NCBI RefSeq assembly: GCF_038738535.1
Contig: NZ_CP046128.1
Location: forward strand, 1,364,001-1,428,000
Source: Bacillus pumilus
GTDB taxonomy: Bacteria > Bacillota > Bacilli > Bacillales > Bacillaceae
DNA: 64,000 nucleotides
Direction of reading: 5' to 3'
Program-made: the position numbers and the translations under genes
Shown: positions 900 to 30,058 of the stretch, piece by piece
How positions within the stretch are numbered: the stretch's first letter is position 1
Layout: each line of letters begins with the position of its first letter
The notes under the pieces: generated by a model
Told to the model about the DNA's origin: nothing
Databases searched by the model: none
Seen by the model: the letters and a program-made list of their open reading frames with translations, nothing else

Positions 900-1169
900 A
901 TGGAATATCAATATCCAATGGATGTCGACTGGACGACAGAGGAAAAGATTGCCGTTATTTCGTTTTTTCAAGCTGTTGAAAAAGCCTATGAAAAAGGAAT
1001 TGCGAAGCAGGAGTTATTAGATACTTATAAACGATTTAAAGAGGTTGTGCCATCAAAAGCAGAGGAAAAGACGCATTGTGCAGCGTTTGAAAAGGAAAGC
1101 GGGTATTCTCCTTATCGTACAGTGAAATCTGCAAGAGAGGCAGAAGAGACAGCCATTATACGTATGTAA
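900..1169 (+). CDS. yktA: UPF0223 family protein YktA
   Basis: Small acidic cytoplasmic protein of 89 residues that matches YktA of Bacillus (UPF0223). The family function is not established. The N-terminus MEYQYPMDVDWTTEEKI and the KAYEKG segment are characteristic. The protein appears all-helical, with no membrane segment or signal peptide. A GAGGGA ribosome site precedes the ATG. It is divergent from speA and convergent with yktB; the 3' side runs straight into a terminator hairpin and a repeat element. Confidence 0.85.
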   Translation: MEYQYPMDVDWTTEEKIAVISFFQAVEKAYEKGIAKQELLDTYKRFKEVVPSKAEEKTHCAAFEKESGYSPYRTVKSAREAEETAIIRM

Positions 1170-1173
1170 GAAA

Positions 1174-1197
1174 AAACGAGCCTGCATGGGCTCGTTT
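1174..1197. terminator. First copy of duplicated yktA/yktB terminator hairpin
   Basis: Stem AACGAGCC / GGCTCGTT with a TGCA loop, directly after yktA. The same hairpin recurs at 1373-1394. This copy is followed by TTTCAG, so its U-tract is short; it abuts the repeat element. Confidence 0.7.
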
Positions 1198-1372
1198 CAG
1201 CGTGTAGACAAACCCTCGCATTCGGTGTCAGTCCTGCGTGCCGGTGCTCACGAATGTCAAATTCGCTCCGCTCCGGTACTCGTCCTTCCTAGACTGCAAA
1301 GGTTTTCTATCACGCTGAAAAGAAGACAAAAGGCTAAAATGAAGATCATTTTAGCCTTTTGTCAACAATCAG
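1197..1372 (+). repeat. Structured repeat element, copy A (about 175 nt)
   Basis: Non-coding element seen again, inverted, at 25458-25637. It starts TCAGCGTG and its core ends CACGCTGA at 1318, giving terminal inverted repeats that extend through TAGA and AAACC. Inside the core are a CGAAT/ATTCG hairpin and a GTGCCGG/CCGGTAC stem. A second domain is a long hairpin at 1325-1363 (GACAAAAGGCTAAAAT pairing with ATTTTAGCCTTTTGTC), followed by AACAATC. The copies differ by paired, compensatory changes, so a structured RNA or a MITE-like element is likely. It is flanked on both sides by the same terminator hairpin. No protein-coding sense. Confidence 0.85.
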
Positions 1373-1400
1373 AAACGAGCCTGCATGGGCTCGTTTTTTT
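1373..1400. terminator. Second copy of yktA/yktB terminator hairpin
   Basis: AAACGAGCC-TGCA-GGGCTCGTTT followed by a run of T, identical in its stem to 1174-1197. It overlaps the stop codon of yktB and probably works in both directions. The duplication flanks the repeat element. Confidence 0.8.
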
Positions 1401-2034
1401 ATACAGATTCTTTTTGTGTAAAGCGGTATAGATAAGTCAACGTGCGGAAGGCATCTTCGATTTTTGATAAGAATTCTTCATTATTCATTTGAACGACTTC
1501 TTCTCTAGGCAGCTGAATGCCGCAAAGGAGCTCAGCTTTTTTCACCGTTTGGACACGTTCAAACAGCGTTTTCAGCTGTTCTGCATCAAGCTCGCTGTGA
1601 CGCATGACATCTGGTTTCATATGATCTTTAGACCAAACAAAATCTTGTGGTATTTTCTTCTGAATGGTATCTAGTTCTTTTTCGAACAGCTGACCATACT
1701 CGCCTTTCACAGGAGATTCATAAATGAGCGCAAACCATACAAAGACATGTGTTTTCCAAAGCCCAATTTGAAAATGAGGGAGTTTTTTATACCCACGCTT
1801 GCTGTTTGCAAAAGCAACCCACGTATCATTTGGCGGATTGACTGATCTTCTAGCATGCTTTGCGACATGTACAAACATTTCGTCTCCTGTAATAGAAGAA
1901 AGAAGTGGTGCAAAGTGTTCACCAAGTGCCTCAAGCTTTGGACGGACTCTTTCTTTTAATACGGTCATTCGTTCATCTAAACCGTCAACTGTAAATGTCT
2001 CAAAATCTTCATCTCTAAAACGCATTTCACTCAT
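1399..2034 (-). CDS. yktB: UPF0637 / DUF1054 family protein YktB
   Basis: Cytoplasmic protein of 211 residues that matches Bacillus YktB (UPF0637, DUF1054). The function is unknown. Features seen are the N-terminal [19 protein letters not shown], the basic [13 protein letters not shown] stretch and the aromatic [13 protein letters not shown] segment. There are no membrane segments. It is convergent with yktA, and its stop codon lies in the shared terminator hairpin. The length equals the family norm. Confidence 0.88.
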
Positions 2035-24551: not shown

Positions 24552-25430
24552 ATGGAGAACTTAGAAATATTCGGATTTCGGGCATTATGGAGCCCTTACT
24601 ATTTGACTAGTATTGTCATAGCAGCTGCTCTTTATCTGCTTCTTGTGACAAAGGGAAAGCACCGTGCGACGGTGAAAGAGAAAACGTTGTTTCTGACGGG
24701 GCTTGTCCTGTTATACGCCGTGAAAGGAAGCCCAATTGATTTAATGGGGCATATTATGTTTAGTGCACATATGGCGCAAATGGCGGTGCTCTATTTAGTC
24801 ATTCCGCCTCTCCTTATTACAGGATTACCTGCGGCCATTTGGGAGCGGATCATACAAACACCAGGCATTCAGCAAATTTTTCGTTTGTTTTCCAAGCCTT
24901 TAATTGCATTGCTTGGATTTAACGGCTTGTTTTCGATGTATCACATTCCGCTTGTGTTTGATTTTGTGAAAACAGATCCGTTTTATCATGCGTTGATGAC
25001 GGTGGTCATTTTTATCGCTGCCTTTTTCATGTGGTGGCCGCTCGTTCATAAAGTCCAAAGTCAGCCGCAGATTACAGGCATTTTAAAGCTTGGTTATATC
25101 ATGGCAGACGGAATATTGATGACTCCTGCGTGTGCTCTCATCATGTTTAGTGAGGCACCGATCTATGCAACCTATTCTGATGCTGGCGCTTGGATACAGG
25201 CACTGCACTTATGCGTGCCAAGTGATATGCTGGCAGGCCTTGCGCTCACAGGTCCTGAAATGTTCCATACCTTGCCGCTGCTAGAGGACCAGCAGCTAGG
25301 CGCGATTTTGATGAAAATTATTCAGGAGATTGTGTACGGCTCGATCCTTGCTGTTGTGTTCTTTGACTGGGCAAGAAAAGAAAGAGCGAAAGATGCCGTA
25401 CCAGATGCGCTGATTCCGAAATATGAATGA
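24552..25430 (+). CDS. ctaG: Cytochrome caa3 oxidase assembly factor CtaG
   Basis: Polytopic membrane protein of 292 residues of the CtaG_caa3 family, needed to make active caa3 oxidase; probably involved in CuB delivery. Conserved [19 protein letters not shown] and [11 protein letters not shown] contain potential metal-binding His and Met residues. The ATG follows GGAGGCG. It is the last gene of the cta operon; the second repeat element begins just after the stop. Confidence 0.94.
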
Positions 25431-25434
25431 AAAA

Positions 25435-25457
25435 AGCACAGCCGTATGGCTGTGCTC
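25435..25457. terminator. First copy of duplicated ctaG/ylbA terminator hairpin
   Basis: AGCACAGCC-GTAT-GGCTGTGCT hairpin just after ctaG. An almost identical hairpin with one base different lies at 25638-25659, on the other side of the repeat element. Confidence 0.75.
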
Positions 25458-25637
25458 AGATTGTTGACAAAGGGCTAAAATGATCTTGATTTAGCCCTTT
25501 GTCTTCTTTTCATTTTCAGCGTGATAGAAAACCTTTGAAGTCTAGGAAGGACGAGCACTGGCGCGGAGCGAATTTGACATTCGTGAGCACCAGCGCACAG
25601 GACTGACAAAGAATGCAAGGGTTTGTCTACACGCTGA
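25458..25637 (-). repeat. Structured repeat element, copy B (about 178 nt)
   Basis: The reverse complement aligns over its whole length with 1197-1372. Ends TCAGCGTG and CACGCTGA (25516-25637 core) are identical. The internal stem is GCGCTGG/CCAGTGC against GTGCCGG/CCGGTAC in copy A: two base pairs have changed on both sides. The second hairpin (25466-25503) has GGGC/GCCC where copy A has AGGC/GCCT, again paired. It lies in the convergent gap between ctaG and ylbA. Confidence 0.85.
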
Positions 25638-25659
25638 AGCACAGCCATATGGCTGTGCT
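25638..25659. terminator. Second copy of ctaG/ylbA terminator hairpin
   Basis: AGCACAGCC-ATAT-GGCTGTGCT followed by TTTCGTTT, directly before the ylbA 3' end. It duplicates 25435-25457 around the repeat element. Confidence 0.7.
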
Positions 25660-25664
25660 TTCGT

Positions 25665-26030
25665 TTATGCTTCAGCAGTCATTGCTTCTAGTTTATCTTT
25701 CAGCTGTTCAAGCGTTTTCTTGCTTGATTGGATGAGAGATTTAGGGAAATCTTCGCCTTCGCCGTATTCAACACCGTGCGGATAATAATGTTTTCCAAGT
25801 AAAGGTGTTAGAAGCTGTATGTGTGCTCTTTTGGAACCAACATCTCCTTCGGTGGCGTAGCCGGAAATCCGTAAATAAAAGGTTCCCTCTACCATGTTAT
25901 ACTTTCTGTCGTACGTCACACGCTCATAATCCCATTGATCGGCTCGTACAAATCCTTCACTTTCCATGATGAAATCTAATTTATTTAAGTCAGCTGCCAC
26001 CTTTTCAATCCCCGTACCTTCAAACTTCAC
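25665..26030 (-). CDS. ylbA: YugN-like family protein YlbA
   Basis: Cytoplasmic protein of 121 residues, YugN-like; function unknown. Conserved stretch: LDFIMESEGFVRADQWDYER followed by VTYDRKYNMVEGTFYLRI. The GTG start at 26030 lies 8 bases after AAGGAGG; an ATG 14 codons upstream would include the ribosome site in the protein. It is convergent with ctaG and divergent from ylbB. Confidence 0.82.
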   Translation of the reverse strand: MKFEGTGIEKVAADLNKLDFIMESEGFVRADQWDYERVTYDRKYNMVEGTFYLRISGYATEGDVGSKRAHIQLLTPLLGKHYYPHGVEYGEGEDFPKSLIQSSKKTLEQLKDKLEAMTAEA

Positions 26031-26164
26031 CCAAAACCCCTCCTTATAAAAATTCCCTTTACTGACAATCATAGTATGAAAGCGTTAAACTTTCAACTGT
26101 GAAAGGTATGTTCTTTTATAACCTGGTTACAGTAATAAAGAAAATAACAGATGGAGGAATCGAT

Positions 26165-29896: not shown

Positions 29897-29906
29897 AGAC
29901 ACAAAA

Positions 29907-29936
29907 AAATCCCCGCGGCATCACCCGCGGGGTCCT
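29907..29936 (+). terminator. Hairpin after ylbG
   Basis: ATCCCCGCGG / CCGCGGGGT arms with a 5-base loop; the following sequence is only moderately T-rich (CCTTCTATTCTT). Probable terminator. Confidence 0.6.
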
Positions 29937-29998
29937 TCTATTCTTAATGATTCATTAAGGAGAAGGCAAAGGGAGAGGAGAAACCGGAGGAAGAACTT

Positions 29999-30058
29999 AT
30001 GGGGAAACGTAAGTCTTCTCCGCGGTTGGCAACAGCACCACATCAGATGCTGTTATAA
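29999..30058 (+). CDS. Possible 19-residue peptide gene
   Basis: A short frame, MGKRKSSPRLATAPHQMLL, follows an excellent ribosome site (CCGGAGG, 8 bases from the ATG), with more purine-rich sequence upstream. The peptide is basic. It lies in the 310-bp gap between ylbG and rsmD that otherwise shows no gene. No homologue is recognised; it may be a chance frame. Confidence 0.35.
   Translation: MGKRKSSPRLATAPHQMLL

What the first reader, a model, noticed from the sequence alone, without database searches (positions are those of the whole stretch)
1197..1372. Repeat pair (1197-1372 and 25458-25637) with compensatory base changes: a likely structured RNA or MITE
The two inverted copies align end to end. 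In the internal stem, copy A has GTGCCGG/CCGGTAC and copy B has GCGCTGG/CCAGTGC: a T-A pair became C-G and a C-G pair became T-A, both sides changing together. In the second hairpin AGGC/GCCT became GGGC/GCCC. Changes that keep pairing imply selection for the fold. A 190-bp B. subtilis repeat suspected to be a structural RNA was described with its genome; I cannot tell whether this is the same family.
Basis: partly seen in the sequence, partly recalled or inferred. Interest (0 to 1): 0.8.

Follow-up and report, generated by a model that had tools for sequence, protein, structure and literature searches.

The report
Terminator-duplicating miniature transposon (MITE) in Bacillus
The repeat is a short gene-less jumping element, very probably moved by an IS1182-type transposase, that inserts into the hairpin ending a gene and leaves a copy of that hairpin on each side; it appears to be the "190-bp repeat" of the Bacillus subtilis genome, long suspected of being a structural RNA.

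Summary
In detail: two ~175-bp copies in opposite orientation, 89% identical, with paired changes in both hairpins. The family has 56 matches in this genome, occurs in 38 of 44 genus genomes and has relatives in other Bacillales genera. Seven predicted pairs covary beyond a tree-aware null.

The key fact lies just outside the reported coordinates. Copies sit between two copies of one intrinsic-terminator hairpin, different at each locus: 136 of 179 exceed every mismatched-flank control. Relatives lacking the insertion carry one such terminator at both window loci. IS1182-family insertion sequences with similar ends duplicate terminators the same way. Best explanation: an IS1182-type MITE whose target-site duplication is the whole terminator hairpin.

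A genome of the length of B. subtilis 168 holds ten copies, origin-proximal and fork-oriented except one at 737 kb.

The conserved fold is strand-specific; whether RNA or single-stranded DNA is selected remains open. IS1272 (IS1182 family) is known to target terminators but deletes the hairpin instead of duplicating it.

The parts
1174..1197 (.). Left copy of the duplicated terminator hairpin (AAACGAGCCTGCATGGGCTCGTTT), with the A-tract to its left
   Evidence: the empty site in relatives G015 and G007 has one copy
1197..1372 (+). MITE copy A, left end to right end (TCAGCGTGTAGACAAA ... TTTGTCAACAATCAG)
1197..1318 (-). Left-end hairpin (TCAGCGTG...CACGCTGA), an imperfect, covarying stem; the better-folding strand is minus
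1325..1363 (-). Right-end hairpin GACAAAAGGCTAAAATGA/TCATTTTAGCCTTTTGTC, with covarying base pairs
1373..1396 (.). Right copy of the duplicated terminator hairpin, followed by the T-tract
900..1169 (+). Upstream gene (UPF0223 family) reading into copy A's terminator
1399..2034 (-). Convergent gene (DUF1054 family) ending next to copy A's right hairpin
25434..25456 (.). Terminator hairpin copy on the low-coordinate side of copy B (AAGCACAGCCGTATGGCTGTGCT)
25457..25637 (-). MITE copy B
25466..25503 (+). Right-end hairpin of copy B
25516..25637 (+). Left-end hairpin of copy B
25637..25659 (.). Terminator hairpin copy on the high-coordinate side of copy B (AAGCACAGCCATATGGCTGTGCT)
24552..25430 (+). 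CtaG-family gene reading into copy B's terminator
25665..26072 (-). Convergent gene (YugN-like) ending at copy B's terminator

Best explanation
The repeat is a non-autonomous miniature transposable element with terminal inverted repeats of the type TCAGnnTGTnGACAAA, very probably moved in trans by an IS1182-family DDE transposase. Its target is the hairpin of an intrinsic terminator, recognised by shape and not by sequence. Strand transfer at the two feet of the hairpin followed by gap repair duplicates the whole hairpin (20-35 bp). The outcome is A-tract, hairpin, element, hairpin, T-tract, so each direction of transcription keeps one hairpin with a T-run, now on the far side of the element, and the element becomes part of the 3' untranslated region of the neighbouring genes. 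Shown from sequence: the copies, the duplicated hairpins, the empty sites, IS1182-family elements with like ends and the same duplication, the covariation, the strand-specific fold, and the orientation bias to the replication fork. Inferred: mobilisation in trans, the strand-transfer geometry, retained termination, and the reason for the fold (most likely a folded end taken up by the transposase).
For: Of 179 distinct full copies, 136 have flanking repeats scoring above the maximum of mismatched-flank controls; the unit is 20-35 bp with a median stem of 10 pairs, A-rich outside left and T-rich outside right. Empty sites at both window loci in relatives carry a single terminator. IS1182-family elements with TIRs such as TCAGCTTGTAGACAAA (15 of 16 identical to the MITE left end) are flanked by a duplicated hairpin: L209, L226, L210, L237, and in the own genome L218 and L233. 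In L220 the same terminator carries hairpin-MITE-hairpin-IS1182-hairpin. The same holds in other Bacillales genera, for MITEs and ISs. Of 104 copies, 101 lie downstream of at least one stop codon (median 33-35 nt) and none lies inside an ORF.
Against: No transposition was observed. The own genome lacks the IS group with the closest ends; it holds three full copies of a second group, 46% identical in protein, whose ends match at 12-14 of 16. The inner part of the MITE, about 100 nt, has no counterpart noticed in the ISs, though this was not searched systematically. A minority of copies have unlike hairpins on the two sides, which needs recombination or decay.
Confidence: 0.86

Rival explanations
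1. The element is primarily a functional structured RNA (a 3'-UTR element or sRNA) whose fold is selected for a cellular role, spread around the genome by an IS1182-type transposase.
For: Covariation beyond a tree-aware null; the same strand folds better in 94 of 96 genus copies and in 43 of 43 distant relatives by a median of 12 kcal/mol; the fold, including internal loops, is recognisable across many genera; most copies lie just past a stop codon.
Against: No Rfam family and no promoter-like site in the scans. In tandem contexts read-through from the upstream gene would give the weaker-folding strand (39 versus 14). Copies are absent from close relatives at both window loci. G-U is only modestly favoured over A-C among changes (126 versus 80 events).
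Confidence: 0.2
2. The paired changes come from quasipalindrome template switching during replication, not from selection, so the fold has no function.
For: In the right hairpin three adjacent pairs change as a block (GGG/CCC versus ATC/GAT type), as templated correction would do.
Against: In the left hairpin single pairs change separately and G-U intermediates are present; internal loops and mismatches stay unrepaired and conserved across genera.
Confidence: 0.15
3. Two terminators existed first (one per convergent gene), and the element inserted between them or carries its own flanking hairpins.
For: A few copies have different hairpins left and right (L010, L017, L162, L273).
Against: Hairpin sequences differ between loci but agree within a locus; empty sites in two relatives per window locus have exactly one hairpin.
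Confidence: 0.03

Closest known systems
190-bp repeat of B. subtilis 168 (described with its genome in 1997; from my own knowledge)
   Same: In a genome of exactly 4,215,606 bp (the length I know for strain 168) there are ten strong copies, all in the origin-proximal half, all co-oriented with the fork except one at about 737 kb, in a family with compensatory changes. This fits the published description as I recall it.
   Different: It was described as a possible structural RNA; here it is shown to lie between duplicated terminators, in 9 of the 10 copies on inspection, as a mobile element would. I recall five copies per side of the origin; I find six and four.
IS1272 / TnSha1 (IS1182 family, Staphylococcus; PMC4923244, PMC5678879)
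   Same: IS1182-family elements that target hairpins, several confirmed as transcription terminators, without sequence preference; ends that can themselves fold.
   Different: IS1272 deletes part of the hairpin or replaces it and leaves no target duplication; here the whole hairpin is duplicated. Wan et al. 2017 drew this outcome as a hypothetical pathway b. The element here carries no gene.
IS1182-family members said to target palindromes (Siguier et al. 2015, as cited in PMC4923244 and PMC5678879)
   Same: Same transposase family (NF033551) and palindromic targets.
   Different: According to PMC5678879 the review gives no detailed data; no MITE with these properties was found in the library.
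Other terminator-associated bacterial elements (SPRITE, RUP and BOX of pneumococcus; group IIC introns)
   Same: Short intergenic repeats, or elements that use terminators as landing sites.
   Different: SPRITEs contain terminator-like sequences (PMC10969869), and I know of no report that they duplicate a target hairpin; group IIC introns are retroelement ribozymes that insert beside the hairpin (from knowledge).

Membership tests
MITE | Short, non-coding, multicopy, intergenic | tested here: met
   About 175 bp, 56 covariance-model matches in the own genome, none inside an ORF among 104
MITE | Terminal inverted repeats | tested here: met
   TCAGCGTGTAGACAAA versus TCAGATTGTTGACAAA, 13 of 16 identical
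MITE | Target-site duplication, with empty sites in relatives | tested here: met
   Duplicated hairpins 20-35 bp; empty sites
MITE of the IS1182 family | An autonomous element with matching ends and the same target behaviour | tested here: met
   IS1182-family ISs in G015 and G050 with TIR identity up to 15 of 16 and hairpin duplication
MITE of the IS1182 family | Actual mobilisation by the transposase | not testable with these tools
   Needs a transposition assay
IS1272-type stem-loop replacement | Target hairpin deleted or replaced, no duplication | tested here: not met
   The hairpin is present on both sides
B. subtilis 190-bp repeat | About ten copies in strain 168, origin-proximal, fork-oriented except one near 737 kb | tested here: met
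   genome identity rests on contig length, and the published description on memory
B. subtilis 190-bp repeat | Letter-for-letter identity with the published alignment | not testable with these tools
   The 1997 paper was not found in the library
Rfam structured RNA family | Covariance-model match above the gathering score | tested here: not met
   best sub-threshold match 27 bits against 54 needed
Structured RNA (general) | Covariation supporting the fold | tested here: met
Structured RNA (general) | A transcript of the better-folding strand | not testable with these tools
   No RNA data held

The most novel reading that the evidence does not exclude
A structure-guided transposition system in which both donor and target are read as folded single strands: an IS1182-type transposase takes up a MITE through a conserved, strand-specific foldback end, joins it to the feet of hairpins extruded near the replication fork, and so copies whole terminators. 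That would explain the covariation, the strand-specific fold and the fork orientation together.
Probability: 0.25. Interest if true: 0.8.

Novelty: new variant of a known kind. Interest (0 to 1): 0.62.

Why it matters
It offers a concrete answer to an open question from the first B. subtilis genome paper: what the 190-bp repeats are, why they appear structured, and why they are oriented. It also shows a family-wide insertion rule across Bacillales, a transposon that lands in transcription terminators and copies the terminator. If the duplication keeps termination in both directions, such elements are nearly harmless passengers, which would explain their high copy number, and they rewrite the 3' ends of many transcripts. 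The known terminator-targeting relative (IS1272) destroys its target, so this variant separates two outcomes of one targeting mechanism.

Tried and rejected
Rfam at gathering and permissive thresholds: nothing credible. BLAST of the core outside the genus: no match; only a covariance model reached the distant relatives. Phage records: no match. Paper searches for the 190-bp repeat, Bacillus MITEs and terminator-targeting transposons gave no description of this element; the 1997 genome paper and the Siguier review were not found in the library. The idea that a purely double-stranded cruciform explains the fold was set aside because one strand folds better almost everywhere. The idea that each convergent gene brought its own terminator was rejected by empty sites. 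A gene-direction-only explanation of the orientation bias was weakened, not excluded: in convergent contexts at unique sites it is still 21 to 5 with the fork, but the co-directional gene may be the stronger one.

Full report
WHAT IS THERE. Copy A (1197-1372, +) and copy B (25457-25637, -) are two members of one repeat, 88.9% identical end to end. The own genome has about 40 copies by BLAST and 56 matches by covariance model; the model search scores a capped number of candidates, so counts of 62 in other genomes are lower bounds. In the genus, 38 of 44 genomes have it. Rfam has no family for it.

THE FLANKS. Both copies lie between two copies of the same hairpin: AAACGAGCCTGCATGGGCTCGTTT at 1174-1197 and 1373-1396; AAGCACAGCC(G/A)TATGGCTGTGCT at 25434-25456 and 25637-25659. 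For copy A, an A-tract lies outside on one side and a T-tract on the other, the layout of a bidirectional intrinsic terminator. The duplication holds for nearly every copy in the genome and in relatives. In 179 distinct full copies, 136 have flanking repeats scoring above the largest of about 1,800 mismatched-flank controls; most of the rest are visibly diverged versions, and about a dozen have unlike flanks. The unit is 20-35 bp (median 25), with a median stem of 10 pairs; bases outside are 60% A on the left and 62% T on the right. The hairpin sequences differ from locus to locus, so they come from the target.

EMPTY SITES. At the locus of copy A, relatives G015 and G007 have one terminator and no element; the two matching flanks overlap by 24 bp in G015, which is the duplicated unit. 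At the locus of copy B, G015 and G007 also have one terminator, and G016 has a truncated remnant of an element. This is direct comparative evidence for insertion with duplication of the whole hairpin.

THE PARTNER. IS1182-family transposases (NF033551) occur in most of the genus genomes searched. Two groups of full insertion sequences were examined. Group 1 (G015, G050; protein 451 aa) has ends TCAGCTTGTAGACAAA and TCAGACCGTAGACAAA; its left end matches the MITE left end at 15 of 16 positions. Group 2 (46% identical protein; in the own genome, G004, G009, G051 and others) has ends such as TCAGATTGTAGAGAAA. Both groups are flanked by a duplicated terminator hairpin of 16-31 bp. In L220 one terminator was hit twice, giving hairpin-MITE-hairpin-IS1182-hairpin. 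The IS ends are also foldback sequences. That the transposase moves the MITE in trans is inferred; the own genome has only group 2.

DISTANT RELATIVES. A covariance model of 17 copies finds relatives in 28 of 200 genomes sampled across the order, in 18 genera counting the own one, several multicopy and most matches full-length. Weak matches near the threshold may be chance; the strong ones share the end TCAG(A/G)CTGTTGACAAACGCTCGC and many sit between duplicated terminators as well, for example L362, L365, L367, L381, L385, L389. IS1182-family elements in those genera (L428, L431) also duplicate terminators.

THE FOLD. Two hairpins make up the element: a long imperfect left-end hairpin whose base contains the terminal inverted repeat, and a right-end hairpin. 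With 175 copies, a FastTree tree and a null that re-places substitutions on branches, the seven highest-scoring of all column pairs are predicted pairs, and 7 of 66 pairs pass E<0.05 (this is my own approximation of R-scape, not R-scape). With 17 diverse copies, 97.6% of cells pair, against 32-43% when partners are slid by 1-3 columns; the structure came from these sequences, which favours it. The strand complementary to copy A folds better in 94 of 96 copies and in 43 of 43 distant relatives, by a median of 12 kcal/mol. Copies share ancestry, and the distant ones were found with a model of that strand, so these are not independent counts. Changes from a Watson-Crick pair went to G-U 126 times and to A-C 80 times on that strand, a modest preference. 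The fold is therefore conserved and strand-specific, which suits RNA or single-stranded DNA better than a symmetric cruciform. Neither is shown.

PLACE AND ORIENTATION. Of 104 copies with neighbours called by a simple ORF finder, 48 lie between convergent genes, 53 between tandem genes, 3 between divergent genes, none inside an ORF, and the stop codon is typically 33-35 nt away. Copy A lies between a UPF0223 gene and a convergent DUF1054 gene; copy B between a CtaG-family gene and a convergent YugN-like gene. With dnaA at the start of the chromosome, 30 of 40 own copies and 111 of 142 copies in eight genomes have copy-A orientation along the fork (some loci are shared between genomes, and the lists are best hits). 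At unique sites between convergent genes it is 21 to 5. This puts the better-folding strand on the leading-strand template. Two readings remain: insertion is biased by the fork, or copies with the strong hairpin on the lagging-strand template are lost.

WHAT THE ANATOMY IMPLIES. Duplication leaves the left hairpin without its T-tract on the element side and the right hairpin with it, and the reverse for the other strand. So for each convergent gene the far hairpin keeps its T-run, and the element becomes transcribed 3' UTR. The simple scans support this only in part: they report T-run terminators outside copy B on both strands but for copy A list other sites. Retained termination is inference.

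COMPARISON WITH THE KNOWN. G003 is one contig of 4,215,606 bp, the length I know for B. subtilis 168. It holds ten strong matches, at 318,955 to 737,371 and 3,107,025 to 4,141,504, all co-oriented with the fork except the one at 737,371; nine of ten show duplicated hairpins on inspection. From memory, the 1997 genome paper describes a 190-bp element in ten copies around the origin, oriented with the fork except one at about 737 kb, with compensatory changes suggesting a structural RNA. I take these to be the same family; the paper could not be read here. IS1272 and TnSha1 (IS1182 family) in staphylococci target hairpins, several confirmed as terminators, but delete or replace them without target duplication (PMC4923244, PMC5678879). 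Wan et al. [quoted passage not shown] The elements here show that outcome.

VERDICT. An IS1182-type MITE with whole-terminator duplication: confidence 0.86. A cellular RNA role: possible, not supported beyond the fold. Novelty: a new variant of a known kind, and a probable explanation of a known but unexplained repeat.

Noticed in passing
L220 (G048): One terminator hit twice: hairpin-MITE-hairpin-IS1182-hairpin, three copies of AAGCCCTTAGAGAGGGCTT.
   Followed up: partly
L327 (G016), locus of copy B: A truncated element (right-end part only) at the same terminator as copy B, although the closer relative G015 has an empty site; either independent insertions or precise loss in G015.
   Followed up: partly
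L017, left flank: The left hairpin (AAAAAAGGGCTAAAATTATTTTAGCCC) resembles the element's own right-end hairpin, as if one copy had inserted beside or into another.
   Followed up: no
G120:C38:2796-3519 and G080:C3:286582-286950: Closely spaced, array-like series of covariance-model matches in two distant genera.
   Followed up: no
Plasmid records NZ_CP078511.1, NZ_CP078512.1 (Stutzerimonas stutzeri), CP063894.1 (Klebsiella variicola): Copies of this Bacillus repeat in plasmid records of Gram-negative hosts, possibly from mixed cultures or misassigned contigs.
   Followed up: no
L428 (G223), L431 (G065): IS1182-family elements with another end type (CATGCTGTTGAAAAA / CAGAGTGTTGAAATA) also duplicate whole terminators, so the rule seems general in Bacillales.
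   Followed up: partly
window 29901-30025, +: ylbH leader (RF00516), 115 bits: an ordinary known leader RNA.
   Followed up: no
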